From Candidatus Methanomethylophilaceae archaeon (GTDB lineage Archaea > Thermoplasmatota > Thermoplasmata > Methanomassiliicoccales > Methanomethylophilaceae), in assembly GCA_944320495.1 (NCBI GenBank), contig CALUHR010000013.1, positions 478,687 through 542,686 on the forward strand: a stretch of DNA of 64,000 nt, read 5' to 3'. Positions 762-60,713 of the stretch are shown piece after piece. Made by a program: the position numbers and the translations under genes. Numbering within the stretch: position 1 is the first letter of the stretch; the number at the start of each line of letters is the position of its first letter. The notes beneath the pieces are model-generated. The model was not told where the DNA came from. It did not search any database and saw only the letters and a program-made list of their open reading frames with translations.

Positions 762-1508
762 ATGACCGACGGCCCACTCACAGACTTCGAGCTGTACTTC
801 ACCAAGAACGGACTGGTGCAGGTGTCGAACGACGTGAGGCGCCGCATCCTCCACGAGCTGGAGACGAAGGACCTGTCCCTCACAGACCTCTCCAAGATCC
901 TCGGCAAGGCGCAGTCTACCCTTTCGGTACATCTGGACAAGATGGTCGACGAGAGCCTCATCGCCGTACACGACGATCCGGAGGACAGCAGGAGGAAGGT
1001 GTACTCCCTCGTGTCCATCATGCTCGCGTACTCCAAGCCCCCGTCGGACGACGCCATGACCATGGCGATGAAGGTCCTCACGGAGGTCGCGGATGACCCC
1101 ATCGCGACGCGCAACGCCCTGACCAAGTTCCTCTTCCTGGGGTTCGACGGGATGGGTCTTTCGGTGGAGCCCATGGCCACGATCCTGGGGTCCATACACG
1201 CTATGGCGCTGGGAGGGTTCCTCACGGGACCCACCATCGAGGACACGGTCGCCAACGCCAGGGACTACTACAAGAAGATGGGGTTCGGTGACGCCAGTGT
1301 GTTCTCCCTGAAACCGCTGTCCATCACGATAAAGGACGACCTCTCGTTCTCGGCGGACGCCGCCAAGTCTCTCGGCAACTACGCCATCGGGTTCTTCAGC
1401 AAGGTCCTGGAGGACGCCACAGGGAAGACCTACTCCGTCACATCGAGCGAGGTCTTCGGTCTCGACGGCAACTACTTCCGCTTCACCATCGAGCCCGTGA
1501 GCCAGCGA
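762..1508 (+). CDS. ArsR-type winged-helix regulator with C-terminal V4R-like ligand domain
   Basis: Predicted transcription regulator of 248 residues. Residues about 15-85 form an ArsR-like winged helix (VRRRILHELE, then a recognition-helix region with STLSVHLDKM). The rest resembles a V4R small-molecule domain and ends with the typical glycine/Phe motif GNYFRFTIEP. There is no TAA, TAG or TGA at this point: the frame meets CGA at 1506-1508 and would otherwise run 663 nt antisense through arfC to 2171. I end it at CGA, where the fold is complete. The ligand is unknown. Confidence 0.75.
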
Positions 1509-2138
1509 TCGCCTCGACGGTTCGAACGTCAGGAGGGCGCCGTTGCCCAGGGTCTCGCAGGAGACGAGCGTGAGCCTCATGCCTCCGTCGGCCACCCATC
1601 CGTCGCCGTCGCAGGGCGTGGGGGCGTCGCGGCCGCCGATGACGAGGCCTCCGACGAACACGGTGTACCTGTCCACCATGCCTGCTCTGAAGAACGACGA
1701 TATCGTCTCGCCGCCGCCCTCCACGAGGACGTTCTCGACCCCCATGTCCGCGAGCTCCTTCATGACCTTCTCCAGGTCGATGCGGTCGGCGCCGGCGCGG
1801 ATTATCTCCTCGCAGTCCCACTCGCGGTCGCAGCCCTCCAGGGTGACCATTATTGTCGGTGCCCTCTCGTCCAGGATCTTCGCTTCGTCCGGGGTCCTCC
1901 CGTGGGGGTCCAGAACGATCCTGATGGGGTTGGTGTCGTAGTCCAGGTCCTTGAGCGTGAGATGCGGGTCGTCAGCGACGACGGTGCCGACGCCCACGAG
2001 TATGGCGTCGTATTTGCGCCTGAGCCCCTTGGCGCGGGCCTTGTCCTCCTCGGAGGAGATCGATACCTGGGTCCTGTCGTCCCCGGCGATCTTGCCGTCG
2101 GCGGACATGGCGCAGTTGACGTGTACGAAAGGTCTCAT
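1509..2138 (-). CDS. arfC: 2,5-diamino-6-ribosylamino-pyrimidinone 5'-phosphate reductase
   Basis: NADPH-dependent RibD-C/DHFR-like reductase of archaeal riboflavin and F420 precursor synthesis. The 209 residues show the family start (VNCAMSADGKIAG), a glycine motif (LVGVGTVVADDP) and the VLVEGGGETISSFF nucleotide-binding segment. The ATG overlaps the rtcA stop as ATGA, so the two are co-transcribed. The protein is complete at ...LLTFEPSR, where the frame has CGA (1511-1509) instead of a stop. Reading on would add about 257 codons antisense to the regulator. This CGA directly abuts the regulator's CGA. Confidence 0.85.
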
Positions 2139-3172
2139 CTCTTCGCCCCCGGCGTGACTGTGAAACGATAGACGTCGTTGGTCCTCTCCACCCCGAACTT
2201 CACATCAAGGAAGGACTCCAGCGTGTCCATCTGGCTCAGCAGGTGCCTGCTGATCCTGGAGACGTTGAACGAGCTCTCCCCGGTGGCCATGGCCATGTAC
2301 GGGAGGAGCTGGTCGGCGGTGTGGACGTCCATGGTCGCACCGCTCTGCATCTCGCTGATGAGGTCCCTAGCGGCGTCCTTGCCGCTCCTCTCGGGCGACT
2401 GGCCCCTGGCGGACAGGGCGTTGCTGCCGAGCATCCCGTTCTCGTACTCCGCGACGAGCACCAGTCCTGCTCCGCGGGAGTCCCCCTCGGTGCGTTGGAC
2501 CTCGATGTCCACGTCGATGTCGGGTTCGAAGGCCTGCCTGCAGCTCTTCACCATGGCCTCGGGTATCCAGTCCGCCAGGCGCTGGCAGAAGCAGATCCCG
2601 CGGACCTGGACGAGCTCCCCGAGGGAGTCCAGCGCCAGCGGGGTTATGTCGCCTATGGGGTCTAGGGTGGCGATGACGCGCCCCCCGCCCTGGGGGTAGA
2701 AGCCCCTGTCGATGATCTTGACGTCCGCGTTGATGCCCATGCGCCTCATCATAGGGAACAGCAGGGTCGAATAGGAGTCGATGGGCGGGGCCCACATGAC
2801 GTTGGTCCCCCCGCTTATGTCGACGGTGAGCCTGCGGGTGTGGTTCCTCGCGGCCAGGAGCATCGCCTGCAGGACCAGGCTGATGCTTCCGGCGGAGCTG
2901 ATGTTCACGTCGATGTCGTACTCCTGCTCGGTCCCGGGGTAGAACTTGAGGTCCCCGGAGCCCATGGTGCACCCCTCCACGGTGGATCCGGCCATCCTGG
3001 CGACGGCCTTGACCGCGGCGACGTGCTGTCTGGAGAGTCCGTTGGTCGGTCTGTTCTCCCTTATGCGGGTGAGGTGTAGCGGTATGCCCGTGACGGTGGA
3101 CATGGCTACCGACGTGCGGACCATCTGTCCCCCTCCCTCTCCGCGGGAGCCGTCTATCTCGAGCATATCCAT
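2135..3172 (-). CDS. rtcA: RNA 3'-terminal phosphate cyclase
   Basis: ATP-dependent enzyme that converts RNA 3'-phosphates to 2',3'-cyclic phosphates through a covalent adenylyl-histidine. Its 345 residues match the usual family length. It has the N-terminal signature DGSRGEGGGQMVRTS and the active-site region HTADQLLPYMA, whose His is the expected nucleophile. A CTAAAA-type TATA lies about 20-28 nt upstream of the start at 3172. It is the first gene of the rtcA-arfC pair, and its TGA overlaps the arfC ATG. Archease, which partners with the RtcB ligase, is encoded separately at 21820. Confidence 0.93.
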   Translation of the reverse strand: MDMLEIDGSRGEGGGQMVRTSVAMSTVTGIPLHLTRIRENRPTNGLSRQHVAAVKAVARMAGSTVEGCTMGSGDLKFYPGTEQEYDIDVNISSAGSISLVLQAMLLAARNHTRRLTVDISGGTNVMWAPPIDSYSTLLFPMMRRMGINADVKIIDRGFYPQGGGRVIATLDPIGDITPLALDSLGELVQVRGICFCQRLADWIPEAMVKSCRQAFEPDIDVDIEVQRTEGDSRGAGLVLVAEYENGMLGSNALSARGQSPERSGKDAARDLISEMQSGATMDVHTADQLLPYMAMATGESSFNVSRISRHLLSQMDTLESFLDVKFGVERTNDVYRFTVTPGAKR

Positions 3173-3240
3173 GCGACGGCGATTGGGGGCCGTTCTTTTA
3201 GGGGTTTCGATGGATTCGAAACGGTGCAGAATTGGAGAGA

Positions 3241-3315
3241 TGGTGCGATTGCCGGGAATCGAACCCGGGTCAGAGGCTTGGGAAGCCCCCGTCCTAACCG
3301 CTAGACTACAATCGC
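3241..3315 (-). tRNA. tRNA-Gly (CCC)
   Basis: Full cloverleaf on the minus strand. The acceptor is GCGATTG paired with CAATCGC, the anticodon loop TTCCCAA reads CCC, and the T-loop is GTTCGATTC. The discriminator is A and CCA is encoded (3241-3243). Confidence 0.95.
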
Positions 3316-3407
3316 GCAGAGGCTCGAATACAGTCTACATATTTAATTGAGGCTGATGGCCCGTCCTGTGTTCTCTTTAAATACCAAATCCATCTATCGG
3401 AATCTGC

Positions 3408-3483
3408 GGGCTCGTGGTCTAGTGGTTATGACGTCGCCCTTACAAGGCGAAGGTCGCCGGTTCAATCCCGGCCGGGCCCACCA
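3408..3483 (+). tRNA. tRNA-Val (TAC)
   Basis: Acceptor GGGCTCG pairs with CGGGCCC, and the anticodon loop CTTACAA gives TAC. CCA is encoded at 3481-3483. A TTTAAATA TATA box at 3376-3383 lies about 27 nt upstream. Confidence 0.95.
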
Positions 3484-3530
3484 CCTCATTCGTCACCAAT
3501 AAATAGGGCGACCTGTTGCCCTGTCCTAAC

Positions 3531-3604
3531 GGACTCATGGTCTAGTTGGTTATGACGTCGCCTTCACACGGCGGAGGTCGCCGGTTCGAATCCGGCTGGG
3601 TCCA
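3531..3604 (+). tRNA. tRNA-Val (CAC)
   Basis: Acceptor GGACTCA pairs with TGGGTCC, and the anticodon loop TTCACAC gives CAC. CCA is not encoded. An AATAAATA TATA box lies at 3498-3505. It closely resembles the neighbouring tRNA-Val and probably arose by tandem duplication. Confidence 0.95.
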
Positions 3605-3710
3605 CTCATGTTCTACTCCCGATGATTCCGTCCCTACTTCACGTTCATCGGTCTGCGTTATCAACCCTGGGTGATATGCCGCATATGCCGGGTCCAGAGG
3701 CCCGGATCCC

Positions 3711-6900: not shown

Positions 6901-6904
6901 GCCG

Positions 6905-9249: not shown

Positions 9250-9903
9250 TCGGTCCTTCTCGAACATGTGCTTCGGGGAGGTCAGCGGACGGGTCCAGAG
9301 CGGGTCGTCCTCCAGCCTCTCCAGGTCGAGTGCCAGATTGCGGAGGCTCCCGCCGTACGACGGGTCCCCGGCAATCCTGCGGATGGTCTTCGAGTCATCG
9401 CCGGAGCGCGTCTCCAGGCCCGACATCCTCAGGGCGCCGTCCATGAGGTCCGCCGCGCGGAGGAGGAGCGTCTGCGCCTCGCGTAGCATGCCTATGCGGG
9501 TGTCCGGGTCGACCTTCGCCCTCCTGCCGATCTCGTACCGGGCGGGCTTGGTCTCCGTACCTTTGGCTATGTATCCGCATCTCCTGCAGGACCTGCTCAT
9601 CTCCACGGTCCCCCCGTCGAGGGTGCGGTTGCGGACCGATGTCATCGGGTTGCCGCACACGGGGCACAGGTCGCCGACGGGGCGGTCGCTGGACGCGTAG
9701 CTGATCTCCAGGTTGATGAGCCCCCTCTCGATCCCGATGCGCCTGACGCGGTCGGCCCCGACCCTGAAGAGCGGGTCGCGGTACGCCAGGTCGGCGGCGA
9801 CGGCGTCGCAGAGCTCCCTCTGGGAGCGCATGCGCGGACACCGGACGAGGCAGTCGTCGATGGACCTGGCCACCTCGTCGTCGCTGGGGATCCTGTAGGC
9901 CAT
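9250..9903 (-). CDS. Zinc-ribbon protein, possible regulator
   Basis: 217 residues, family not recognised. The N-terminal part is helical (DDEVARSIDDCLVRCPRMRS). Residues about 79-106 hold a four-cysteine ribbon, CPVCGNPM...CRRCGY, typical of a Zn-binding nucleic-acid or protein contact module. The C-terminus is helical. I prefer ATG 9903, about 25 nt from the shared TATA, over ATG 9945, which would overlap the promoter. The protein ends at CGA (9252-9250), just before the ACT-gene promoter. Reading through would continue out of frame inside that gene to 8362. All other Arg codons here are CGC, AGG, CGG, CGT or AGA. Confidence 0.65.
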
Positions 9904-9924
9904 GCGGCCTGGATGTGCATTCCC

Positions 9925-9936
9925 GTTTATATTCTC
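9925..9936. promoter_or_regulatory. Shared bidirectional TATA element
   Basis: The sequence around TTTATATT is AT-rich on both strands. It lies about 28 nt upstream of tRNA-Leu on the plus strand and about 25 nt upstream of the ATG at 9903 on the minus strand. Confidence 0.5.
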
Positions 9937-9956
9937 GGTGCGCATCGGTCAGACGA

Positions 9957-10039
9957 GCGGGGGTAGCCGAGTCGGACAAAGGCGCGGGACTTAAGATCCC
10001 GTCCGCAGAGGTTCAGGGGTTCGAATCCCCTTCCCCGCA
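9957..10039 (+). tRNA. tRNA-Leu (TAA)
   Basis: Class II tRNA with a long variable arm. Acceptor GCGGGGG pairs with TCCCCGC, and the anticodon loop CTTAAGA gives TAA. CCA is not encoded. Confidence 0.95.
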
Positions 10040-10083
10040 CCTTCTCAGAAAATAGTATACGGGCGTCGTCCGATACGAACCCC

Positions 10084-10358: not shown

Positions 10359-11531
10359 TCGGGTCCGGGTCCTGCGCCCGGGCCCGCGAAACATCTTTTT
10401 GAGCACTATCCCGCGGCTGGTCAGGTAGCTGAGCAGCGCGTTCCCGGTGAGCTCCTCGGTCTGGGGCCCCTTTCTGACATAGAATATCTCTATCTTCCCG
10501 TCCTTCAGGAACACCGGCTTGGGGCAGCTCTCGCAGTGCACGTGGATGACGGCCTTCCCGTCGATGTCCACGATCCTCGAGGTTATGAACGGCAGGAACC
10601 CCGACCCTATCTGGGACGAAATCAGGTTCCCGAGGTGGAGTCCCATCTTGTCCCTGCTCCCGTCGAACGAGTCCACGTCGGCGCCTATGACCGAGCCGTC
10701 GTCGGCGACCCCCACGAGGAGGTCCCCTCCGTCCGAGTTGAGGAAGGCCACGATGGTCTTCAACACGGCCTTCTCCATCCTCTTGTCGTTCTCGCCTGTG
10801 GCCAGGTTGGTCCTGAGGGTGGACTTGTACTCCGTCCATTCGGACTCGCCCTCCTCGATGATGCGGCGGATCGCCGCCTCCTCCGCGCCCTCCAGCCCTA
10901 TGGTCTCGGAGTTCTCCTCCAGGAACGTGTTGACGATGCCGTCGAACACGCTGTCCCTGCGCTGGAACGTGTGCAGGGCGGCCACCACGAGCGCTCCGAT
11001 CAGGATGTAGGTGAGGTCCTCCATGAAGACGCCCAGGCTCAGGCCGTCTCTGTAGGGCGCGATCTGCGCGATCCAGTACTGGAGCATCCTCGTGAGGGTG
11101 TACGCGGAGAGGGCGATGCAGATCGAGATGAACGACACGGTCGCACGGCTCCCGTCGCGGTCCTTCGGCAGCGTGCGCAGGACCGAGTAGACGAGGATCA
11201 TCCCCAGGAGGCCCAGGTTCATCCCCGTGACCAGGTTCGTCATGATCAGCAGGGCCCCGCCGTCGGCGGCCAGGCGTCCGAAGAACGCCAGGAAGAACGC
11301 CAGGACGACCAAGACGATGAGCTCCGGCGGGACGTGGATGGCCTTGCGGTCGGTGAACACGGCCAGCCCGAAGATGATGACCATAGGTATGCCGGTCAGG
11401 CCGGCGGTCATCTCCCCCACGGCGAAGCTGATCGCCGTGAACACGACGATTATCGCGAAGGAGATGCAGTAGAACGCATACGCGCCGCGCTTCAGCCTGT
11501 GCTGCCCGATTGGGCCACCGTGTTCGGCCAT
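10359..11531 (-). CDS. Multi-pass membrane protein with C-terminal AlbA_2 (Schlafen-type) domain
   Basis: 390 residues. The N-terminal half has about six to seven hydrophobic helices (residues about 18-215). The C-terminal half carries an AlbA_2/AAA_4 putative nucleic-acid-binding domain with SEWTEYKSTL, then VAFLNSDGGDLLVGVADDG and RDKMGLHLGNLI. The start ATG at 11531 has a GTTAAG element about 22 nt upstream. The family-like end ...SRGIVLKKMF and a short tail reach CGA (10361-10359). The frame continues antisense over the DUF5654 gene to 10248. I found no other CGA in the gene. A membrane-tethered regulator is possible. Confidence 0.7.
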
Positions 11532-11657
11532 GTCCGTAGAACGGAGTGGCCGACTTAACGGCTTCGGGGGTCCCCAGTCTCCCCCTACGTACGTATACAT
11601 ACGCCGTACCTCGGATACCGAGGACGGGTTTAAGCCACGTCCGCGCATCCACGTATC

Positions 11658-12284
11658 ATGGACAGGATCATCACAGTCACGGGTGCAGGCGTCGCGACGG
11701 CAAAGCCGGACCAGGTCAGGATAGACGGGACCATAAGCGGACACCGCACGGACTACGCCTCCGCCGTCGAGGCCTCCGCCTCGTCGGTCGCCGAGCTCAG
11801 GAAGATCATCGGGGAGGCCGGGTTCGACATGGACCTCCTCAAGACGACCGGGTTCTCGGTCTCCGCCTCGTACAAACAGGTGGAGAGGGACGGGGCCAGG
11901 GTCATGGCCTTCGACGGGTTCAGCTACAGCCACGGGGTCAGGATAACCGTCGACGCCGGGGAGGACGGCCTCGGGAGGCTCCTGGAAGCGATGCTCGGAT
12001 GCGCCAACGCGCCGGAGTTCCGCGTCTCCTACACGGTCAGCGATCCCACGGAGCCCATGGCCCGCGCCAGGGCGGAGGCCGTGAGGGACGCCAGGCACAG
12101 GGCCAAGGACCTGGCCGAGGCCGCCGGTGTCAGGCTCGGGTCGCTGGTGTCGATATCCTACGTCTCCAGCCCGTGCAACGTCGCCACCCCCAGGATGAGG
12201 GCGATGTCGATGGACATGGGGAGCATCGTCCCCGAGGACGCGGAGTTCCACGACTCGGTCACGATGGAGTGGGAGATCCTCTGA
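11658..12284 (+). CDS. SIMPL-domain (DUF541) protein
   Basis: 208 residues of the SIMPL/DUF541 (BP26-like) family: an N-terminal ITVTGAGVATAKPDQVRI strand and a C-terminal region with ARAEAVRDARHRAKDLAEAAGVRLG, both diagnostic. Unlike many bacterial members it has no signal peptide, so it is probably cytoplasmic. A TTTAAG TATA element lies about 28 nt upstream of the ATG. The molecular role of this family is unclear. Confidence 0.8.
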   Translation: MDRIITVTGAGVATAKPDQVRIDGTISGHRTDYASAVEASASSVAELRKIIGEAGFDMDLLKTTGFSVSASYKQVERDGARVMAFDGFSYSHGVRITVDAGEDGLGRLLEAMLGCANAPEFRVSYTVSDPTEPMARARAEAVRDARHRAKDLAEAAGVRLGSLVSISYVSSPCNVATPRMRAMSMDMGSIVPEDAEFHDSVTMEWEIL

Positions 12285-19588: not shown

Positions 19589-19664
19589 GCTCCGGTAGTG
19601 TAGCGGCCAATCATTCGGCCCTTTCGAGGCCGACACACGGGTTCGAATCCCGTCCGGAGCACCA
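19589..19664 (+). tRNA. tRNA-Glu (TTC)
   Basis: Acceptor GCTCCGG pairs with CCGGAGC, and the anticodon loop CTTTCGA gives TTC. CCA is encoded (19662-19664). A TTTATTAA TATA box lies about 28 nt upstream. Confidence 0.95.
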
Positions 19665-19684: not shown

Positions 19685-20797
19685 TCGGCGGCCGAGCATC
19701 ATCTTCCTTCTGAACTCGGCGCTCCTCTTCGCGACCTCGTCCACGTTGTGCCTGTCCACCACCTGAACCTCCGGCAGCCTGCGCGGGTTGGCCGCGAGCA
19801 TCCTGTCCAGGAGGTTCCTGTCGGAGAACTCGCACTTCTTCAGGTACGGCCTCTCCCAGTTCGACGCCAGGTCCATCATGGCCTCGATCCCGCGGTCGTA
19901 GAACAGCGAGGCGAACACGGCGCCGACGGTGGACTCCTTGGACATGATGGCGATGTTGCACCCGCGCACGGCGAAGTCGGTCCCGTTGAACGAGACCGCC
20001 GCCCCGCCCGCGTCTCTCACGAGGTCCAGGCACTGGTAGTCCGTGTCGTCCCCTCCGATGTACATGGTGCAGTCCAGGTCGATGTTGGTCTGCTTCCTGA
20101 TGTCCAGGAGCTGGTACGCCTTGCGGTGGGACGTCACAGGCACCGAGGACTCCATGAGGCTCATGGCCGGGAGCTCGGGTATCTGGTTCTGGAGGATGTC
20201 GTCCAGGGTCCTGATGATCTTGACGTCCCACTCGTCGATCTCCATGGGGACGTTGAGCTCGTACTCCACCTTCGGGATGCGCAGGGACGTCACCGTCTCG
20301 CACATCTCGCGCATCCTGCGGGCGTCCGCGCGACCGAACTGCATGTGGTCGAGGTCGGTCTGGGAGCAGAACACCTCGCACAGCGGCACGTCGATCCTGT
20401 CGGCGACGGTCATCCATCCGTGATTGTAGATTGAGGTGGACACGAAGGTGGGGAGCATCCGGGATATGAAGCGGAGCGCGTCCTCGGAGCCGGGCATGAA
20501 CCTGAGCGTCTCCTCGTACGCCTTCTTCAGGAGATGGTCGGTGGCGCCGTTGGCCTTCAGGAAAGGGATGACCCATTTGGCGGTGTTGCCGGCCGTGGCC
20601 TCCTCCCTGCCCAGCACATAGGCGGTGAGATGGTCGTACCTCCTCACCACGTCGTAGAAGTGGGCGCCGTTGCGGATGAAGCGGGCGCAGACGTCGCGGA
20701 GGGGGTCGTTCTGAAGGACGAAGCCGCAGAGGTTCGTCACGAGGATCCTGTCGGGGAAGAGCCCGAGCTCCTCCGCGGGGTCGTACTCTCCCGGCAT
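19685..20797 (-). CDS. HAD-like protein of the methanogen EhaR type, nucleophile motif altered
   Basis: 370 residues resembling archaeal HAD-superfamily proteins annotated as EhaR. The start TNLCGFVLQNDPLRDVCARF aligns with SDCEGPxxxNDxAxELxxxF of that group, but the two acidic residues of the HAD nucleophile motif are lost. The distal GGDDTDYQCLDLV motif is kept. The ATG overlaps the upstream CGA as CGATG. The frame has a CGA at 19687-19685, four codons before a TGA (19672-19670); I end the gene at CGA and record the TGA as the alternative. Phosphatase activity is doubtful. Confidence 0.6.
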
Positions 20798-21624
20798 CGC
20801 TGGTCCTCCAGCGCCCTGTCGACCATCTCGGAGAGGTCCACGGGTCCGCGGACGGTTCCGTCCGAGGTCACAGGCCTCTTGTCCTCTATCCTGACCCTGC
20901 CGTCGGCGAAGGCCCTGATGGTCTCGGTTATGAGGGGGAGCTCGCGCTTGGCACCATCCTCCCTGATCCTCTTGAACAGGGGCTCCTCCAGCCCCTCGGA
21001 TGCCTTGATCTGGTCGAGGGTGGACGATTCCAGCTTCCTCGCCATCTGCTCCCACAGGGCGTCGTAGTTGCCTCCGCGGATGGGGAACCCGCAGTATGTG
21101 ATGGCCGCCCCGCGGTCCCACTCCTTGGTGCACACGTGCATCATGGCGCCCTGTCTCTCCGCGTTCTCGGAGATGAGCTGCCAGATGACCTCCTGCCAGG
21201 TGCCTTTTGGTCCGTCCGGCAGAGCGGGGTGGAGGTTGAGCATGTCGAACTCGTCGCAGGTCTCGTCGTCCATCCAGAGCATGTATCCGGCGAGGATCCC
21301 CAGGTCGAACTCGTACGGGGAGACGGCCTCGCGGAGCACCTTGCCGTACTCCACGCGCCATGCGGCCTCGTCGGCCTCCCTCAGCTCGGGCATGAACTCC
21401 TTCCAGGATGCGGTTACGAGCGGGATGCCGTAGCCCTCGACCATGTCGAAGAACATCTGCCGCTGTTCGCGCTTGGGGTTGTCGGTCTCCTCGTTGGACC
21501 AGTTGCAGAAGACGAATGCAATCTCGACGTCCAGGTCGCCCGCGAGCTTTCTGTCCATGACAGCCTTCAGGAGGTTGCGGGACCCCGGGCCCCTTCCGGT
21601 GGAGAACCAGCCGAGTCTGAGCAT
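20797..21624 (-). CDS. Formyltransferase-like (PurN/GART fold) protein
   Basis: 275 residues with a formyl-transferase core: N-terminal LGWFSTGRGPGSRNLL, the catalytic Asn-His pair in MLNLHPALPDGPKGTW, and the Asp in TKEWDRGAAITYC. It lacks the second domain of methionyl-tRNA formyltransferase. The formyl acceptor is unknown; glycinamide ribotide is only one possibility. It is co-transcribed with the HAD-like gene. The reading frame ends in CGA (20799-20797), whose last base is the first of the next ATG (CGATG). Reading on gives 20 codons out of frame inside that gene. Confidence 0.7.
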
Positions 21625-23881: not shown

Positions 23882-25014
23882 GGGACCCCCTCCCATGGAT
23901 GGAGGACATAGGAACAGACATCATGGACCGCGTCCTCGCCGCCCGCGAGGCTTACGATCCCTCATCGTACACCGAGTCGGACGTCCGCAGGGCGATGTGC
24001 GCCGAGCCGTCCGTCGAGGGATTCGCAGCGCTCCTGTCGCCGGCCGCGGAGCCTCTCCTCGAGGAGATCGCCGCACGTGCGAGGGAGGTCACCCGCGCGC
24101 ACTTCGGGAACTCCGTCTGCATGTTCACCCCGCTGTACGTCTCCAACTACTGCATCAACGGATGCGTCTACTGCGGGTTCCACAAGGGGAACAGGATCGA
24201 GCGTCTCAAGCTCGGTCTGGACGACGTCGCCCGCGAGCTCGACGCCATCGCCGCCACCGGTCTGGAGGACATCCTCCTGCTCACAGGGGAGACCCACTCC
24301 GAGGAGGATGTGAGGTACGTCTGCGACTGTGTCTCCCTCGCCGCCGAGTGCTTCGCCGAGGTGGGCATCGAGGTCTTCCCGATGAACTCGGGAGACTACG
24401 CGAGGGTCCAGGCGGCAGGCGCCGACTACGTCACGGTGTTCCAGGAGACATATGACACCGGGAGGTACGACGAGCTCCATCCGTTCGGTCCCAAGTCCGT
24501 GTTCTCGTACAGGTTCAACGCCCAGGAGAGGGCGCTCATGGGAGGCATGCGCGGGGTGGCCTTCGGCGCCCTGCTGGGTCTGGCCGATTTCAGGAGGGAC
24601 GCGTTCGCCTGCGGGCTCCACGCGATGGAGATACAGCGCAGATATCCCGCCGCGGAGATCTCCATGTCGCTCCCGAGGCTGAGGCCGGCCGCTCACATGG
24701 ACCAGTCCTCCGGCGTGAGCGAGGCCCAGCTCCTCCAGGTCTCCATGGCGTACCGCCTGTTCCTGCCATATGCGGGGCAGACCATCTCCACCAGGGAGCG
24801 CCCCGGGTTCAGGGACGGGATCGTCGGGATATCGGCCACCAAGATCTCGGCCGGGGTCAGCGTCGGCATCGGGGAGCACAGCGGGACGGGCCACGGCGAG
24901 GGCCAGTTCGTGATATCGGACCCGAGGGGCGTGGACGACGTGGTCTCGGCGCTGAGGTCCAACGGCCTCCAGCCCGTCATGGCCGACTATGTCCGCACGG
25001 GGCCCAGGGAATGA
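23878..25014 (+). CDS. thiH: Tyrosine lyase, radical SAM (anaerobic dehydroglycine formation)
   Basis: 378 residues from a TTG that overlaps the thiG stop; an ATG at 23896 is the first standard alternative. The radical-SAM cluster motif CINGCVYC is intact, with HKGNRI after it, and the biotin/thiamin-synthase-associated C-terminal region is present ([15 protein letters not shown]). ThiH cleaves tyrosine to p-cresol and dehydroglycine, and is the oxygen-independent counterpart of ThiO. The stop overlaps thiE by ATGA. Confidence 0.92.
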
Positions 25015-25610
25015 TCGCCGTCACGTCCCGCTCGCTGTGCGGGGAGCCGTTCCTGACGAGGGTCGCCAGGCTGGCCGAGGCCCGTCCGGAGATGATCATC
25101 CTGAGGGAGAAGGACCTCACGGAGGGCGAGTACCTGGCACTGGCGGCTGGATGCAAGCGCATCTGCGACCCTCTAGGCGTGCCTCTGGTCGTCAACCACT
25201 TCGTGTGGGTGGCCGGCATGCTGGGGATCAGAAGGATCCACCTGCCGATGCCGGACCTCCGCGAGGAGGACGTGTCGGGGTTCGACCTCGTGGGCGCGTC
25301 CGTGCACTCCGTGGAGGAGGCCAGGGAGGCCGTGTCGCTCGGGGCGGATTATCTCATAGCGGGGCACGTTTTCGGAACCGCCTGCAAGCCTACCGAGCCG
25401 AGGGGGCTCGGATTTCTTCGCGACGTCTGCTCGGCCGTGGACGTCCCCGTGTACGCCATCGGGGGCGTGGGCCCCGACAACTACCGGAGCGTCCTCGAGG
25501 CCGGTGCGCACGGCGCCGCGGTGATGTCGTCGGCCATGACCTGCGACGATCCCGAGGCTCTCGTTGACGCGATGCCCTCTCGCAAAGGTCGATATCCCCC
25601 GAGCCGTTGA
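25011..25610 (+). CDS. thiE: Thiamine-phosphate synthase family
   Basis: 199 residues with a ThiE/TenI barrel: MIILREKDLTEGEYLALA holds the pyrophosphate-binding Arg, and GASVHSVEEAREA, GHVFGTACKP and YAIGGVGPDNY follow the family order. It should couple thiazole phosphate to the pyrimidine. TenI-type aminotransferases without synthase activity look similar, but its place as last gene of thiSFGH favours synthesis. It ends with TGA 6 nt before the HD-domain gene. Confidence 0.82.
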   Translation: MIAVTSRSLCGEPFLTRVARLAEARPEMIILREKDLTEGEYLALAAGCKRICDPLGVPLVVNHFVWVAGMLGIRRIHLPMPDLREEDVSGFDLVGASVHSVEEAREAVSLGADYLIAGHVFGTACKPTEPRGLGFLRDVCSAVDVPVYAIGGVGPDNYRSVLEAGAHGAAVMSSAMTCDDPEALVDAMPSRKGRYPPSR

Positions 25611-25616
25611 CCCCGC

Positions 25617-26252
25617 ATGGACGAGGCGACCTTCGACCGCGCCAAGGCATTCATCCGCGACCTCTTCGAGGGCGACAGCGGCGGTCACGACTACTGGCAT
25701 TCGATTCGCGTCCACGACCTCGCCGTCTCCATCTGCGGCAGGGAGGGAGGCGACATGGACGTCGTCCGTCTGGCGGCGCTCCTGCACGATGCGGACGACC
25801 GCAAGCTCTTCGGACAGGGGAGCCGCAACGCCAGGGGATTCATGGACTCCGAGGGCATACCCTCAGACGTCCAGGACGAGGTCGTGGAGATCATATCGAA
25901 GATATCGTTCAAGGGAGCCGACACCGAGGTGCCCGCATCGCTGGAGGGGAGGATAGTCCAGGACGCCGACAGGCTGGACGCCATAGGTGCCGTCGGCATA
26001 GCCAGGGCCTTCGCCTACGGCGGGAGCAGGGGCCGTCCGATGCACGATCCGGAGGTCCCGCCGTGCGAGGGCATGGGCGAGGCCGCCTACTTCGCCAATC
26101 GCGGGACGACGGTCAACCACTTCCACGAGAAGCTGCTCCTGCTGAAGGACATGATGAACACCCCGACCGCCCGCGCCATGGCGGAGTCCCGCCACCGCTA
26201 CATGGAGGGCTTCCTGGAGGAGTTCCTGGACGAGTGGGAGGGCCGCAGGCGA
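25617..26252 (+). CDS. HD-domain metal-dependent phosphohydrolase
   Basis: 211 residues of the HD superfamily (YedJ-like): HDYWHSIRVHDLA, the LAALLHDADDRK doublet, and VQDADRLDAIGAVGIARAFAYGG. The substrate is unknown; such proteins often hydrolyse nucleotides or phosphate esters. The end EEFLDEWEGRR is the usual C-terminus of the family, and CGA stands there at 26250-26252. The frame would otherwise run 300 nt antisense into the regulator. No other CGA occurs in its 211 codons. Confidence 0.82.
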
Positions 26253-29553: not shown

Positions 29554-30102
29554 ATGGAAGAGCGTCGGCATCTCGGCATGGAGGACATCCTCGGCCTGCT
29601 AAGGTCCAGAGGCATAGCATTCGAGGAGGCGCATCACCCTCCGGTGTTCACCATCGAGGAGATGCTGGAGCAGGATCTCCCGCATCCCGAGCTAATCGCC
29701 AAGAACCTGTTCCTGAGGGACGACAAGAAGCGCAGGTACTATCTCGTGGTCGCCAGGGAGGATCAGAGGGTGGACCTGAAGGCCCTCCGCACGGTCATCG
29801 GTTCCAGGCCCCTCAGCATGGCCTCCGAGGAGGACCTGATGTCGCACCTCGGGCTAACGCGCGGGTCCGTCACGCCGTTCGGCATACTCAACGACCCGGA
29901 CCGTTCGGTGGACGTGGTGGTCGACTCCAGCTTCCGCGGGTCCCGCATGGGCGTCCATCCCAACGACAACATGTGCACCGTCTGGGTCGGCACGGAGGAC
30001 CTGGAGTCGCTCATCTCGGACGGATGCGCGTCCTTCGCCTACGCGGACCTGCCCACATCCGACCGATGGGTCCATCGCCATTCCTATCTATGGCATCCCT
30101 AA
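29554..30102 (+). CDS. YbaK/ProX-type aminoacyl-tRNA deacylase
   Basis: 182 residues of the YbaK/prolyl-tRNA-associated-domain family: VFTIEEMLEQDLPHPELIAKNLFLRDDKKRRYYLVV, then LTRGSVTPFGILND. Such proteins clear mischarged Ala- or Cys-tRNA-Pro. The length fits the free-standing ProX form. It ends with TAA, one of two in the window. An ATG at 29578 is an alternative start closer to the family's first helix. Confidence 0.85.
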   Translation: MEERRHLGMEDILGLLRSRGIAFEEAHHPPVFTIEEMLEQDLPHPELIAKNLFLRDDKKRRYYLVVAREDQRVDLKALRTVIGSRPLSMASEEDLMSHLGLTRGSVTPFGILNDPDRSVDVVVDSSFRGSRMGVHPNDNMCTVWVGTEDLESLISDGCASFAYADLPTSDRWVHRHSYLWHP

Positions 30103-46822: not shown

Positions 46823-47184
46823 CGCTCCGCCTCCTTCGCCTCAGGCCCCTTCCAAGGGGTTTTGGTGCTGGTCCTGAAGAAGTTACCCTTGTAGTCGAGT
46901 TGACTGTCCTCGAACTCCACGTCGAACAGGTCGTGGATCTCGTTCTCGTAGACGAACGCCGCCCAGTATGTCGGCGTGATGCTCTTGACCACCGTGCCGA
47001 ACGGGACGGTCACGTTGTAGTTCACCAAGGAATGGTCCTTGTCGAAGCTGTACACGAGCTCGGTGGACCCCTCGCCCGTTATCCCGCAGATCTGCACCAT
47101 GCGGTAGCCCTCGGCCTTCAGCTCCTCGGCCTTGCCGGGGACGGCCTCGGGGCTCAGCTTCTTGAACCTCTGCTCCTGGAACAT
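46822..47184 (-). CDS. echD: Ech hydrogenase NuoC-like subunit
   Basis: 120 residues resembling the 30-kDa NuoC/EchD proteins: YRMVQICGITGEGSTELVYSFD, then the C-terminal FVYENEIHDLFDVEFEG-like region (here DLFDVEFEDSQLD) that contacts the large subunit. It ends in CGA (46824-46822) overlapping the echE ATG. Four codons later there is a second in-frame CGA followed by TAG (46806-46804), inside echE in another frame. Confidence 0.88.
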
Positions 47185-47618
47185 CGCTTCTCCCCCTCCA
47201 TCTTGGCGCGCTTCTCCTCGAGGACGGCGACGCCCTTCACTATGCCGTCTATTATCGATTCCGGCCGGGCGGCGCATCCGGGGACGTAGACGTCCACCGG
47301 GATGACCTTGTCCGCCCCGCCCAGTATGTTGTAGCAGTCGCGGAAGATCCCGCCGCTGCAGGCGCATATGCCCACGGCGACGACGACCTTCGGCTCTGGC
47401 ATCTGGTCGTATAGCTGCCTCACGACCTCCTTGTTCTGGTCGTTGACGGCTCCGGTGATCAGGAAGATGTCCGCCTGCTTCGGGTCCCCAGTGTTGATGA
47501 CCCCGAACCGCTCGGCGTCATAGATCGGGGTGAGACAGGCCAGCACTTCTATGTCGCACCCGTTGCAGCTGGATGCGTCGTAATGCAGTATCCACGGTGA
47601 CTTCGATGTGCAGCTCAT
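47184..47618 (-). CDS. echC: Ech hydrogenase small subunit (NuoB-like)
   Basis: 144 residues. The proximal [4Fe-4S] ligands are present: CNGCDIEVLAC near residues 18-28, then GICACSGGIF and YVPGCAARPE. The ATG overlaps the echB stop as ATGA. The protein is complete at ...KMEGEK, where CGA (47186-47184) overlaps the echD ATG. Readthrough would only add 10 codons to 47154. Confidence 0.9.
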
Positions 47619-48502
47619 GCTATCACCAGCAGCGCGATGATGTTGCCCATGCCGAGGACCAGGGAGACGATCCATCCGCTCTTCAGGGCGGTCTGCCACT
47701 TCATGCGGGCGAATCCGTTGTCGATCCAGATCTCCAGGATGTAGGCGAGGACCGCCACGACGGCGCCGATCACGACACCCGTCCATTCACCGTTCTGGAA
47801 AAACAGCGCCACCATGCCCAGGAGCATGATATTCTCGTACCAGTGAGAGACCTCCATCATCGCATAGGTGCGACCGGAGAACTCGGTGGCGACCCCGCGG
47901 ACTATGTCCTGATGGGCGTGATGGGACATGCTGAGGTCGAACGGCGACTTCCTGAGCTTCATGGTGAGGATGAACAGGAATCCGAGGAAGATCCCAAGCA
48001 TGGGGAGGATCGCCATGTCGCCGAATCCAGCTATGTCCCTGACGGCGAACGAGCCGCCGTCCTCCCCTCCGGTGAACAGGTAGTAGGCAACGGCCATAAT
48101 CAGAATCATCGGCTCGTAGGCCATGGCGACGTAGATCTCCCTCTGGGCCCCGACCTGTGCGAACGGGGATCCGGAGCAGTACGCCGCCAGGACCAGGAAC
48201 GTCTCGCCCAGCGTCAGGGTGAAGACGATCAGCAGCAGGTCCATGCCCGCGAAGAACATGGCCCCAGTGACGACTATCCAGAACAGGTAGCACGCCACAT
48301 AGAAGTCCTGGACGCGGTTGGACGTCCTGCGCTCCTTGGCGAGCAGCTTGCGGACGTCGTACAGGGGCTGCATGACGGGCGGTCCCTGCCTGCCCTGCAT
48401 CCTGGCGGAGATCTTCCTGTCGATACCGGCGAGGATGCATCCGGCGACAGGCGCCAGAGCAACGAAGATCACGGCGAACAGCAGGAGTGTCCAGTTGCTC
48501 AT
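47615..48502 (-). CDS. echB: Ech hydrogenase membrane subunit (NuoH-like)
   Basis: 295 residues with about eight hydrophobic helices. It has the NuoH/EchB signatures GIDRKISARMQGRQGPPVMQPLYDVRKLL-type loop near residues 27-55 and the acidic loop RKSPFDLSMSHHAHQDIVRG. It anchors the hydrogenase arm and links electron transfer to ion movement. Start ATG 48502 is shared with the echA CGA/TGA end. It ends with TGA. Confidence 0.92.
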   Translation of the reverse strand: MSNWTLLLFAVIFVALAPVAGCILAGIDRKISARMQGRQGPPVMQPLYDVRKLLAKERRTSNRVQDFYVACYLFWIVVTGAMFFAGMDLLLIVFTLTLGETFLVLAAYCSGSPFAQVGAQREIYVAMAYEPMILIMAVAYYLFTGGEDGGSFAVRDIAGFGDMAILPMLGIFLGFLFILTMKLRKSPFDLSMSHHAHQDIVRGVATEFSGRTYAMMEVSHWYENIMLLGMVALFFQNGEWTGVVIGAVVAVLAYILEIWIDNGFARMKWQTALKSGWIVSLVLGMGNIIALLVIA

Positions 48503-50418
48503 CGCAGCCACCCCCCGCAGGCCAGGACGATGCAGGCGACGATGACGACCGCGGTCACGGCCTCCCCGACCTTCCTTATCCTGTCCTCGCCGAACCAGTC
48601 CTCCATGTACCAGTTCCTGAGAGTCACGTTCACCGGTGCCCCCATGGACCCGGTGTAGCTCAGGTCGTCGATGTTGACTCCGGACATGTAGTTGGGCACC
48701 TCCTTTGTTTTGGATCTGCCGAAGAACGGCACGAAGATCAGCACCAGCGCGACCAGCATTATCAGCAGGAGGTACAGGTTGTTGGTCTCCATCAGGGCCA
48801 GGTCCGCGTGCTCGGGGAAGAATGCGATGTCCATCCACGGCACCACGAGCCAGTCGGAGAGCAGCGGATAGCCAAGGCAGACGATGACCACGAGGGCGGC
48901 CAGCGATCCGAGCACGGTCCACTCCTGAGGCCTGACGGTGTCCTCGATGTCCTTCGCATCCCTGACCACGCACGCGAGCTTGCCGAGCCACTTGGTCCAG
49001 TAGAACCCGGTGACGGCGCTCCCGAACGCGATGCACGCGACGAGGATGACGCTCATGGCCTCCTCGGTGTCGACGAAGGCAGTCAGGGCGGCCCACTTGG
49101 ATATCAGCATGCCGAACGGCACCAGGAACATGGCCGCTATGCCGAGCATCATGATCAAGGCGAGCTTGGGCATGCGGGCGAACAGCCCGTCCATGTCCTC
49201 TATGTTCCTGCTGCCTATGTGATGCTCCGCGGTCCCGACGCAGAGGAAGAGCAGGGACTTGGTGATCGCGTGGAACACCATCAGCATGACGCCTGCCCAG
49301 GCGGCCTCCGGTGTGCCGACCCCGGCGCACGCGACGATGAGGCCCAGGTTGGCTATGGTCGAATAGGCCAGCACGCGCTTGGCGTTGCTCTGGGATATGG
49401 CGGCCATCGATGCCAGGAGGAATGTCAGTCCTCCGACGGCCATGACCATGTCGCCTCCGATGTTCCCGTAGAGCAGGGGCGACAGCTTGAGCAGCATGAA
49501 CACCCCGGCCTTGACCATGGTGGACGAGTGCAGCAGCGCGGATGTGGGCGTAGGCGCGACCATCGCTCCGAGCAGCCACGTGTGGAACGGCATCTGGGCG
49601 GACTTCACGATGCCCGCCAGGGCCATCAGCATGACCGCCACGAGCAGCCAGTCCGCGACGAGGGCGTCGGGTGTCGCCAGGAGCCTGTCCAGGGCGAGGA
49701 AGCCTTCCTGGTCGGCCAGGAGGATCAGCGCCGCGAGGAACGCTATGCCTCCGATCAGGTTCAGGATCAGCTGGCGGAACGAGTTGTTGACCGCCTCCTC
49801 CGTCCTGGTGAATCCGATGAGGGCGAAGGAGCACAGTGTCGTTATCTCCCAGAAGAAGAACATCCATACGAGGTTGTTCGACAGGACGACGCCGTACATG
49901 GCGCTGAGGAAGACGAACAGCAGGAAGAAGAACCAGCGCCTGCGGTCCTTCTCGTCGGCGTGATGCTCCTGGAAGTCCCTCATGTAGCCCACGGCGTACA
50001 CGCAGATCAGGCTACCGATGATTCCGATGATCAGGATCATCACGATGCTCAGGTCATCGATGTAGAGCCCGTTCTCGACCTCGATGCCTTCCTTGAAGAC
50101 GAATTCGAAGCAGACGGACATCACCAGCTGCACCAGTCCGAGGACCGATGCGATCGGCTTCTTGTGTTTGATACCTAGATAGATGATGACCAGGCCCAGG
50201 ATCGCCTCTATGGCGAACATGAGCAGGTCGATGGACTCCCCCGAGACCTCGAACGTCTGAGGATCGCCGTGATAGTTCCAAGCCACCCAGATGGAGGTTG
50301 CGATGATCAGGGCGGCGCCGATATAGGATATCGGACCCCTGGCCCTGTCGTTCTTCACCACCAGGAGGATGCATGCGACGATGAATGGGATGACCATCAT
50401 CAGCAGTATGTCGTTCAT
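48502..50418 (-). CDS. echA: Ech hydrogenase antiporter-like membrane subunit (NuoL-like)
   Basis: 638 residues with about 14-16 transmembrane helices. The ion-channel core has conserved charged helices (WMFFFWEITTLCSFALIGFTRTEEAVNN; LLHSSTMVKAGVFMLLKLSP). This subunit pumps H+ or Na+. ATG 50418 is preceded by a GGAGAGGT ribosome site; a TTTTTTTAATAC TATA element lies further up. At the end, CGA (48504-48502) comes directly before TGA (48501-48499) and overlaps the echB ATG, so both signals are present in tandem. It is the first gene of echABCDEF, in the Methanosarcina order. Confidence 0.92.
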
Positions 50419-58938: not shown

Positions 58939-58979
58939 GTGGCCACCGGCCTCCATCGACGATGGAGGCCGGTGGCCAC
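58939..58979. repeat. 41-bp perfect palindrome (20-bp arms, 1-nt centre)
   Basis: Arms 58939-58958 and 58960-58979 are exact reverse complements around a single A (centre CATCG-A-CGATG). On RNA this folds as a very stable hairpin after relief of the loop. It lies 40 nt after the membrane-protein stop and may be a terminator or a mobile-element end. Confidence 0.95.
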
Positions 58980-58999
58980 AAACCAGTTTTGTGATTCCT

Positions 59000-59185: not shown

Positions 59186-59275
59186 ACGGAGCCATCTGAG
59201 AGGTCTCGACGAGAATCGCCCCATCCGAACGTGAGGTGAACAGAGGGATCACAGAACATCGCCGGCCGAGGGAGG

Positions 59276-59351
59276 TGGTGGGCCTGCCCGGATTTGAACC
59301 GGGGTCAATGGCTCCCAAAGCCACAAGTATACCAAGCTAGCCCACAGGCCC
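59276..59351 (-). tRNA. tRNA-Pro (TGG)
   Basis: Acceptor GGGCCTG pairs with CAGGCCC, and the anticodon loop TTTGGGA gives TGG. CCA is encoded (59276-59278). A TTTAACTA TATA-like element lies about 27 nt upstream, just after the CGA end of cca. Its 3' end faces the accessory island. Confidence 0.95.
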
Positions 59352-59393
59352 ACTGGGACGTCCGATTGCTTGACGATAGTTAAAGGTTCGCCG

Positions 59394-60713
59394 TCGGTTC
59401 TCCCACGGCATCCTCGGGTCGAGGAGCTCCGTCAGGAGCAGTGGGTCGACGGTGTCTATCGTCGCTTCGGAGTCCAGGATCTCCATGGTTTTCGTGTCCA
59501 GCTCCTTCCCGATCCCGGAGATCGGCCCCTCGCGCTCCAACATGGCGGCGGCGGTTGCGTACTGTCTGTCCGCGACGACCACCCAGTGCCCGTTTTCGAT
59601 GAACGGCTCGCCGTGAGGATTCCCCTTCCATCTCTCGAGGAACGGCGCGGAGTCCACCCATACGGGCGGGCCGATGTGCCTGTGCGTCGCCGGCAGGACG
59701 TCGCACTCCAGCTCGAAGGCCACGGTCATGTGCGTGTCGTCCATCGCGTGCTCCGCCCTGAGGACGCTGAACCCGAAGGAGTCCAGCCTCTTGGCGAGGG
59801 CGTTCTGGGTCTTCCACAGCTGGGACTGCAGGTTGTCTTCGATCGCATCCGGTCTCGGGAAGCGTACGGCGGTCAGCCTGGAACCGTGCGATGCGATCCT
59901 GGCCTCCAGCACCCCGCGGTCCATGGGGGCCCTCGCATTGGGGAAGAAGAACTCCATCCTCGGCTCCCTCAGGTACTCCCTGGCGGCCTGGATGAACAGG
60001 CACATGGTGTCCAGGTGGACAGCCGATGCGACGTTGCGCCTGTTGTCCACCGGGTCGTACACCACCAGCGGGGCATCCATCTTCGGACCTCTGCCGCGGA
60101 CCTCGATGACGTTGTGCTCGCGCCATCTCGACGCGGCCTCCAGCACCCCGCGGAAGCTTCCGAACCTCACTACGAGGACCTCGCACAGGTACCCGGAGAA
60201 ACCCCTGGAGTCCTGCTCCGCGCCGTAGGTGCCGATGCCCTTCATGAACTTCTTGAGCAGGCGGACCTGGTTGCATCCGGCCTCATCCAGGCTGGATTTG
60301 ATGAATGCGGTGTGGAACGGGGTGCGGTCGACGGCGCTCTTCAGATGCTCGGTGCTGTCGATGCGGAAGCACGGCACCATGTCCACCTCGATGCCCTCGA
60401 AGACCCCCCTGGTGTAGGGGTGGTCGGAGAACATCCTCTCGCCGTGCAGTATGTCCTCGCCGGCCTGCAGCCCGATCCTCCTGAGGTCCTCGGGGCTGAC
60501 CTCCGGAGGAAACATCAGGAACAGGTCGAGGTCCGGATCGGCCAGGAACGTGTTCTTGGAGAAGGACCCGGCGAACCTGGCCTCGGCAGTGATGCCGTGG
60601 GAGGCGACGTAATCCTCCACGAGGGCCTTCAGGCGGTCCGCGCGCTCCCGTATCGATGCGACGGTCTCCGGCGAAGGAACGATCCTCTCAAGCACCACAT
60701 CCTCGAGTTCCAT
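59394..60713 (-). CDS. cca: CCA-adding enzyme (archaeal tRNA nucleotidyltransferase)
   Basis: 439 residues of the class I archaeal enzyme. The nucleotidyltransferase motif is FAGSFSKNTFLADPDLDLFLMFP, with the third carboxylate in GIEVDMVPCF. It adds or repairs CCA on tRNA, which several tRNA genes here lack. ATG 60713 follows a TTTTATATT TATA box by 27 nt. The family-like end ...DPRMPWEN reaches CGA (59396-59394), with a second CGA six bases on. Readthrough to the TAG at 59337 would cross the tRNA-Pro promoter and overlap that tRNA, which argues for the CGA end. Confidence 0.88.

What the first reader, a model, noticed from the sequence alone, without database searches (positions are those of the whole stretch)
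762..60713. In-frame CGA stands at the ends of 15 genes that lack TAA, TAG and TGA, and was not seen inside genes
Seen: CGA is in frame exactly where the protein family ends at 1506 (+), 1511 (-), 6324 (-), 9252 (-), 10361 (-), 17676 (+), 19687 (-), 20799 (-), 26250 (+), 26255 (-), 44241 (+), 46824 (-), 47186 (-), 48504 (-) and 59396 (-). Without it, most of these frames run for hundreds of bases antisense or out of frame through real neighbours. I read GlpK, both ALDH-like and duplicated membrane proteins, the first symporter, IlvC, the first IlvB, EchE, TldD, the DUF4143 ATPase and the CGA-ended genes at 762, 9250, 10359, 16854, 25617 and 26253 for CGA. More than 5,000 codons gave no internal CGA, although CGC, CGT, CGG, AGG and AGA are all used. 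Knowledge: CGA normally means Arg. Reassignments of CGA/CGG to other amino acids are known in a few bacteria, and I know of none to stop. Inference: CGA is a fourth terminator, or TGA is restored by C-to-U editing, or TGA was changed to CGA by mutation or error. Forty-four genes here still end in TGA.
Basis: partly seen in the sequence, partly recalled or inferred. Interest (0 to 1): 0.95.

Follow-up and report, generated by a model that had tools for sequence, protein, structure and literature searches.

The report
Archaea with CGA as stop codon
In gut methane-forming archaea the codon CGA, which means arginine in nearly all life, stands at the ends of about a fifth to a quarter of the genes of this species and almost never inside them, so it is likely a fourth stop codon; one CGA kept inside the gene of the stop-reading protein would let that protein limit its own production.

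Summary
Confirmed, and larger than the finding. All 15 CGA sites are in frame at gene ends. In 856 kb of this 1.77-Mb archaeal genome CGA ends 128 of 537 ORFs of 200 aa or more and lies inside coding sequence at about 3 places, against 3,732 for CGC; a control archaeon has 112 in 400 kb. In a related MAG, SIG8, CGA ends 115 of 273 long ORFs.

Three unexpected facts suggest a mechanism. (1) The release-factor gene aRF1 holds one in-frame CGA, at Arg78, in 24 of 25 genus sequences; 21 other Arg columns counted never use CGA there. (2) All 27 tRNA-Arg(UCG) genes found in 31 genus genomes have a damaged anticodon arm; those read outside the genus do not. (3) SIG8 shows neither that tRNA (87% complete) nor a CGA at Arg78.

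Most likely aRF1 reads CGA as stop, a weakened tRNA-Arg competes, and CGA78 is a feedback brake on aRF1. In the papers searched, sense-to-stop changes are known only from organelles. There are no RNA or protein data here, so termination at CGA is inferred; in some genus members (G030) CGA is a rare sense codon and not seen as a stop.

The parts
762..1508 (+). MsvR-like/ArsR-type regulator gene ending in CGA (1506-1508)
   Evidence: read-through would run 221 codons over the gene at 1509-2138
1509..2138 (-). RibD C-terminal-type reductase gene ending in CGA (1511-1509), abutting its convergent neighbour as CGATCG
   Evidence: profile matched to 215/216; 257 codons
6322..6900 (-). ORF ending in CGA, no family
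   Evidence: 225 codons over a gene of the other strand
9250..9945 (-). ORF ending in CGA, no family
   Evidence: 296 codons, 22 further CGA
10359..11744 (-). Schlafen/AlbA_2-type gene ending in CGA; start uncertain
   Evidence: 37 codons
16854..17678 (+). PHP/metallohydrolase-like gene ending in CGA
   Evidence: 502 codons over a gene of the other strand
19685..20797 (-). ORF ending in CGA, no family; hard stop 5 codons on, so the exact end is not settled by read-through length
20797..21624 (-). Formyltransferase-like gene ending in CGA, overlapping the next start as CGATG
25617..26252 (+). HD-domain phosphohydrolase gene ending in CGA
   Evidence: 99 codons
26253..26912 (-). Crp/Fnr-like regulator gene ending in CGA, abutting its convergent neighbour as CGATCG
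   Evidence: 130 codons
43647..44243 (+). Hexapeptide acetyltransferase gene ending in CGA
   Evidence: 22 codons
46822..47184 (-). Complex I 30-kDa-like subunit gene ending in CGA, overlapping the next start as CGATG; hard stop 6 codons on
47184..47786 (-). NuoB-like subunit gene ending in CGA, overlapping the next start as CGATG; hard stop 10 codons on
48502..49866 (-). Proton-antiporter-type subunit gene ending in CGA; TGA follows at once
59394..60713 (-). CCA-adding tRNA nucleotidyltransferase gene ending in CGA
   Evidence: 19 codons
22522..23085 (+).
   Evidence: (profile matched to 212/215)
25011..25592 (+).
29554..30066 (+).

Best explanation
CGA ends about a fifth to a quarter of the genes of this archaeon and is almost absent inside them, so it is likely read as a fourth stop codon by the release factor aRF1, while a tRNA-Arg(UCG) with a damaged anticodon arm is predicted to read it as arginine only weakly, chiefly at codon 78 of the aRF1 gene, which would make aRF1 limit its own synthesis. 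Shown: the distribution of CGA; its place at family ends in several assemblies; CGA at Arg78 as the only CGA of aRF1 in 24 of 25 genus sequences, in a frozen context (NCT CGA CTN); a 31-39 mismatch or C33 in all 27 tRNA-Arg(UCG) genes found in the genus; in SIG8 no such tRNA found and CGC at aRF1 codon 78. Inferred: that aRF1 releases the chain at CGA; that the arm damage slows the tRNA; that high aRF1 ends its own translation at codon 78 and low aRF1 lets the tRNA read through; that TGA stops drifted to CGA in GC-rich lineages once aRF1 accepted both.
For: CGA at ends and not inside genes: with control G047. Homologous ends: CGA 13 of 46 and 15 of 82 called ends in G000, 15 of 32 and 19 of 46 in SIG8/G028 ('none' rows 3, 5, 4, 2 not counted); exact offset 0 where the next hard stop is far: 6 genes in SIG8, 2 in G001, 2 in G026, 1 in G000, 2 in COG_1. 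aRF1: only one aRF1 locus besides a pelota-like one; R78 CGA 24 of 25, other 21 Arg columns 0 CGA; frozen context 24 of 24, with C after CGA. tRNA: only 31-39 mismatch among 43 distinct tRNAs of G000, 19 genomes with the mismatch and 8 with C33. SIG8: 35 of 44 tRNA hits read, no Arg(TCG). A second clade keeps a sole CGA at aRF1 codon 25, 11 of 11.
Against: No RNA, ribosome or peptide data. aRF1 keeps the usual NIKS and YxCxxxF motifs (G001 has NIRS), so no change that admits C in the first position is identified. tRNA-Arg(UCG) is present in most species. In G030 CGA is not seen as a stop and occurs inside a gene that reads as ribosomal protein L18e; G003, G005, G007 and G009 have an internal CGA in a fast-evolving gene. 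G000 has two further internal CGA. SIG8 is 87% complete and sister to the rest of the genus, so tRNA and aRF1 site may be unassembled or never gained there.
Confidence: 0.78

Rival explanations
1. C-to-U RNA editing turns CGA into UGA in the mRNA, so the genetic code is unchanged and aRF1 sees ordinary UGA.
Against: It does not predict a damaged tRNA-Arg(UCG) in all 27 genes found or a sole CGA kept in aRF1. The base before CGA ends varies (C 62, G 37, A 15, T 14 of 128), so no editing motif is evident.
Confidence: 0.07
2. CGA is an unassigned or very slow codon: ribosomes stall there and are released by rescue factors, not by aRF1 reading a stop.
For: The tRNA is damaged genus-wide and not found in SIG8; aRF1's codon-reading motifs look ordinary; in G030 CGA is nearly absent without serving as an end.
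Against: In SIG8 CGA ends 115 of 273 long ORFs, beside 135 TGA, heavy use for a stalling signal; and aRF1, not a rescue factor, holds the conserved CGA. A pelota-like gene of G000 itself ends in CGA.
Confidence: 0.1
3. CGA ends genes as described, but CGA78 in aRF1 is not a feedback brake: it is a slow Arg codon kept for folding or an RNA element that happens to include CGA.
For: CGA78 is kept in species where CGA is not seen at gene ends, such as the G030 group; flanking bases are frozen too.
Against: A related clade keeps one sole CGA at another place, codon 25 (11 of 11), which suits a stop-sensing role better than folding at one place; the base after CGA78 is C in 24 of 24, as in the bacterial RF2 feedback site (PMC5009743, passages), though it is G after codon 25.
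Confidence: 0.2
4. Assembly or sequencing error, or chance: TGA miscalled as CGA, or ordinary Arg codons near gene ends.
For: Single-base T-to-C would give the pattern at any one site; four of the 15 sites have a hard stop within 10 codons.
Against: Same pattern in separate assemblies; CGA missing inside genes cannot come from errors at stops; all three of aRF1, tRNA and ends change together.
Confidence: 0.02

Closest known systems
Sense-to-stop reassignments of organelles: UCA and UCG in Sphaeropleales mitochondria (PMC6821328), UUA/UUG in Marsupiomonadales mitochondria and UUA/UCA in peDinoflagellate plastids (PMC12574857); passages read
   Same: A sense codon found only at gene ends, the cognate tRNA missing, homologous proteins ending there.
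   Different: Those are small organelle genomes with bacterial-type release factors that carry matching mutations. Here it is an archaeal chromosome with an eRF1-type factor without an evident change, another codon (CGA), and a tRNA that is damaged but mostly kept.
Autoregulation of bacterial RF2 by an in-frame UGA (PMC5009743, passages read)
   Same: A stop codon of the factor's own specificity early in its own gene (codon 26 in E. coli), followed by C, conserved across a clade.
   Different: RF2 is made by +1 frameshift; here the frame continues unshifted, so readthrough by a tRNA is needed. The paper states that the same-frame form was unknown in bacterial RF1/RF2 genes and mentions a giant-virus release factor with stop readthrough.
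Pyrrolysine (UAG) decoding in Methanomassiliicoccales (PMC8211752, passages on Pyl)
   Same: Related lineage; tRNA and release factor are thought to compete at one codon; PylS is present in this genome.
   Different: There a stop codon gains a sense reading; here a sense codon gains a stop reading.
Arg codon reassignments to other amino acids found by Codetta (PMC8629427, passages read)
   Same: CGA among the codons affected; loss of tRNA(UCG) in some cases.
   Different: Those are bacteria of low GC and the new meaning is an amino acid. The screen reports no other amino acid for any archaeal sense codon (2,309 species) and chooses among 20 amino acids, so a change to stop would not show.

Membership tests
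Sense-to-stop codon reassignment | Codon occurs at gene ends and not inside genes | tested here: met
   (about 3 internal in 856 kb of G000; none clear in 420 kb of G028)
Sense-to-stop codon reassignment | Codon stands where homologous proteins end | tested here: met
   rows that do not fit are told in the full report
Sense-to-stop codon reassignment | Cognate tRNA lost or disabled | tested here: inconclusive
   Not found in G028 (35 of 44 hits read, 87% complete); present with damaged arm in G000
Sense-to-stop codon reassignment | Release factor altered so as to read the codon | tested here: inconclusive
   Motifs NIKS and YxCxxxF intact; activity not testable here
Sense-to-stop codon reassignment | Proteins shown to end at the codon | not testable with these tools
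   needs peptides
Release-factor autoregulation (bacterial RF2 type) | In-frame codon read by the factor, early in its own gene, conserved | tested here: met
   for the conserved CGA; that aRF1 reads it is inferred
Release-factor autoregulation (bacterial RF2 type) | +1 frameshift restores the frame | tested here: not met
   The frame continues unshifted after CGA78; so it may work like RF2 control but is not that system
Release-factor autoregulation (bacterial RF2 type) | Weak-stop base C after the codon | tested here: met
   C in 24 of 24 in the genus; G at codon 25 in the other clade
C-to-U mRNA editing | U in the mature RNA at the site | not testable with these tools
   no transcript data

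The most novel reading that the evidence does not exclude
An archaeal chromosome uses an ambiguous code in which CGA means Stop nearly everywhere and Arg at one programmed place, and that place is the gene of the release factor itself. aRF1 reads CGA, a crippled tRNA-Arg(UCG) is kept to let ribosomes through, and the two set the level of aRF1. The circuit arose in Methanomethylophilaceae before CGA became a common stop, sits at codon 25 or 78 of aRF1 in different genera, and is gone in SIG8, where CGA became a near-dominant stop and neither tRNA nor site is found.
Probability: 0.6. Interest if true: 0.98.

Novelty: new variant of a known kind. Interest (0 to 1): 0.95.

Why it matters
In the papers found, sense-to-stop change is described for organelles only; PMC12574857 calls its plastid case the first outside mitochondria. 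A case in a cell's main chromosome with an eRF1-type release factor raises how such a factor comes to accept C in the first codon position. The genus shows possible stages side by side: CGA rare, tRNA damaged, CGA as a minor stop, CGA as a co-dominant stop without detected tRNA, so codon-capture and ambiguous-intermediate models become testable. The in-frame CGA in aRF1 has the same-frame readthrough layout that PMC5009743 says was once considered for RF2 but is unknown in bacterial release-factor genes. In practice, table-11 gene callers would mis-end many genes of these gut and rumen methanogens.

Tried and rejected
A codon-level search for CGA aligned to CGA between genomes was swamped by shadow ORFs of the other strand and dropped (its output was also cut). 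An apparent conserved internal CGA in L039/L297 lies in such a shadow frame (judged from its sequence; antisense to what reads as ribosomal protein L1, name from recall). The first homology count had the same fault (Gly aligned to CGA about as often as Arg) and was replaced by a frame-competition version and by the offset analysis.

The first tRNA searches suggested that a whole sub-clade had lost tRNA-Arg(TCG). Reading G030's tRNAs showed a C33 form that the patterns had missed; one search found it in 8 genomes. I had also thought that the damaged tRNA of G000 was a lone relic; the same damage across the genus rejects that.

The excess of T after CGA ends (71 of 128, against 108 of 378 after TGA) is partly due to CGATG and CGATCG overlaps and is not used as proof. 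What I say is not in print rests on searches in an open-access library without preprints.
Full report
WHAT WAS CHECKED. The window is G000:C13:478687-542686 of an unnamed archaeal genome (1,768,794 bases, 14 contigs, 90.6% complete). All 15 listed positions hold CGA in frame. CGA and TCG are common words (1,768 and 1,889) near the dinucleotide expectation. With CGA as a fourth stop there are 64 ORFs of at least 60 aa, ending TGA 40, CGA 21, TAG 2, TAA 1; of 58 codons tried as a fourth stop (ORFs of 100 aa or more), CGA keeps the largest coverage. Two convergent gene pairs abut as CGATCG, and six of the 15 sites read CGATG. Reading through would run 99-502 codons in 7 of 15 cases, 37 in one, 19-22 in three, 1-10 in four. 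Of 20 proteins cut at CGA, 15 match a Pfam or NCBIfam family, several to the end of the profile, and 5 match none.

GENOME SAMPLE. In 856 kb of G000 (window plus 40 stretches) ORFs of 200 aa or more end TGA 378, CGA 128, TAA 21, TAG 10. In 400 kb of G030, same genus: TGA 196, TAA 23, TAG 10, CGA 6. In the control G047, same order, taking CGA as a stop cuts ORF coverage from 0.904 to 0.814; in G000 from 0.928 to 0.893 and in G028 from 0.926 to 0.905. A coding-signal test asks for in-frame codon bias 50 codons up and down of each codon (trained on four-stop ORFs). CGA with signal on both sides: G000 25, of which 4 without hard stops in the flanks (CGC 3,732; CGG 294); G028 17 and 9; G030 8 and 2; G047 135 and 112. 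The 4 of G000 are aRF1, a flavodoxin-like gene, a membrane protein, and one gene junction. The 9 of G028 read as gene junctions, an end followed by a new start (my reading). 'Signal only upstream' minus 'only downstream' is +139 for CGA and +588 for TGA in G000, +144 and +213 in G028, -24 for CGA in G030 and -7 in G047.

HOMOLOGY-ANCHORED ENDS. References from G047: G000 ends TGA 33, CGA 13, none 3; G028 TGA 16, CGA 15, TAA 1, none 4; G030 TGA 23, TAA 1, CGA 0, none 3. References from G030: G000 TGA 59, CGA 15, TAA 7, TAG 1, none 5; G028 TGA 26, CGA 19, TAG 1, none 2. The same runs aligned 25,355 and 33,622 codons of G000 with 17 and 10 CGA, and 15,945 and 19,339 of G028 with 9 and 4; I read these CGA as shadow frames or alignment edges from the listed sequences; the G028 rows of the second run were counted but not printed. 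In the neighbourhood of aRF1, rows where the next hard stop lies more than 12 codons past the family end have CGA at exactly offset 0 in 6 genes of SIG8, 2 of G001, 2 of G026, 1 of G000 and 2 of COG_1; offsets -3 (G008), +1 (G029), +3 and +4 (G025). Rows that do not fit: five without CGA, all outside the genus (L148, L161, L167, L168 at 17925, L178); L170 -2, L155 +4 and L158 +7 on 3-6 references; and rows of 26-31% identity near 7,000-7,120 in L134, L137, L144, L198, L202, L203, read as shadow frames.

THE RELEASE FACTOR. The genome has two PF03463 loci, aRF1 and a pelota-like gene (pelota named from recall and the PDB listing). aRF1 (L034, minus, 679-1911; G000:C2) ends in TGA and has one in-frame CGA, codon 78, in '...SAIDSIAA-Arg-LKTY...'. 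A scan of named genomes gave 71 loci. For the column count I dropped 15 duplicate rows and rows of 300 aa or less: R78 is CGA in 24 of 25 genus sequences, and the other 21 Arg columns listed have no CGA in the genus. Outside the genus (49 sequences) R78 is CGA in 7 of 47 and R25 in 23 of 39. The genus exception, SIG8, has CGC at R78 and its aRF1 gene ends in CGA. A clade of 11 Methanomethylophilus-like rows (SH-aLRT 99) has exactly one CGA in aRF1 in each, always at the R25 column. In the genus the codon before CGA78 is GCT or TCT and the codon after is CTN in 24 of 24 sequences printed. On the aRF1 tree the genus is one group (SH-aLRT 97) with SIG8 sister to the other 24 (89), so SIG8 may have lost the site or never had it.

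THE tRNA. ARAGORN finds 43 distinct tRNA genes in the sampled DNA of G000 (44 Rfam hits in the genome), among them tRNA-Arg(TCG). It is the only one with a 31-39 mismatch (A.A); tRNA-Arg(GCG) has one at 27-43. The sister G008 has the identical gene. Of the 31 genus genomes (G000-G030), 19 have a tRNA-Arg(TCG) with A.A or C.A at 31-39, 8 have one with C instead of U at position 33 (G030 read in full, the others from the matched strings), and in 4 (G013, G016, G017, G028; 66-88% complete) none was found. In G028, 35 of 44 Rfam hits were read; 9 hits over 80 nt were not fetched and are taken as Leu, Ser or intron-bearing tRNAs; the Arg tRNAs are TCT, CCT, GCG, CCG. Outside the genus, 11 genomes and 3 have U33 and a paired 31-39, and so do, by eye, the 24 matched strings that are not of the genus (some are the same genomes; in 5 of 30 nothing matched).

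INTERPRETATION. Shown: distribution, homologous ends, the aRF1 site, the tRNA damage. Inferred: aRF1 ends translation at CGA, helped by a tRNA too weak to compete; CGA78 is a feedback brake. High aRF1 would end its own translation after 77 residues; low aRF1 would let tRNA-Arg(UCG) read on. The tRNA would be kept mainly for this site. Because CGA78 is conserved where CGA is not seen at gene ends (the G030 group), the feedback probably came first and GC-rich lineages then let TGA stops drift to CGA. NIKS and YxCxxxF are intact, so what lets aRF1 accept C in the first position is unknown; this is the weakest step.

RESULTS AGAINST. tRNA-Arg(UCG) is present in most species. G030 has CGA inside a gene that reads as ribosomal protein L18e (name from recall; no homologue of it lay in the other sampled stretches). 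G003, G005, G007 and G009 each have an internal CGA in a fast-evolving gene near aRF1. There CGA is a very rare sense codon and not seen as a stop. The reassignment is well supported for G000 and SIG8, likely for the sister G008, and rests on a few genes each in G001, G026, G025 and COG_1.

NAMES. That the genus is GTDB's UBA71 in Methanomethylophilaceae is recalled.

LITERATURE. Codetta (PMC8629427, passages): no other amino acid for archaeal sense codons in 2,309 species; it chooses among 20 amino acids. Sense-to-stop: PMC6821328 and PMC12574857 (passages), organelles. RF2 control, the same-frame form unknown in bacterial factors, a giant-virus factor with readthrough: PMC5009743 (passages). 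Archaeal recoding: PMC8211752 (passages), no mention of CGA. Anticodon-stem shortening at 27-43 that changes decoding: PMC13092985 (passages). +4U as a stop signal: PMC5289835 (start of abstract in a listing). That U33 is universal and that position 31-39 matters for decoding is recalled.

Noticed in passing
G000:C9:67854-68522 (outside the window): The genome encodes a pyrrolysyl-tRNA synthetase C-terminal domain (TIGR02367, 260.8 bits, cut-off 178.15), so TAG may mean pyrrolysine here; TAG and TAA are rare gene ends. The same genome would then have one stop turned to sense and one sense turned to stop.
   Followed up: partly
L168 (JAQQTI01, Methanomassiliicoccaceae archaeon COG_1), 9254 (-) and 18604 (+): Two genes outside the genus have CGA at exactly the family end with the next hard stop 32 and 49 codons on; its aRF1 has its only CGA at codon 25.
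   Followed up: partly
L289:15792 (-), genome G030: An in-frame CGA at about codon 30 of a gene that reads as ribosomal protein L18e, in a genome where CGA is nearly absent.
   Followed up: partly
L281:15685 (+) and L273:18733 (+), own genome: Two further internal CGA, in a flavodoxin-like gene and in a membrane protein; they may be rare Arg sites, programmed sites or decaying genes.
   Followed up: no
L090 (G001), aRF1: aRF1 of G001 reads NIRS instead of NIKS in the codon-reading motif; G001 is one of the species with CGA at gene ends.
   Followed up: no
window 1506-1511 and 26250-26255: Two convergent gene pairs share the palindrome CGATCG as back-to-back stops.
   Followed up: partly
window 9957-10041, 3241-3605, 19589-19664, 59276-59351: Six tRNA genes (Gly-CCC, Val-TAC, Val-CAC, Leu-TAA, Glu-TTC, Pro-TGG) lie in the window.
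   Followed up: no
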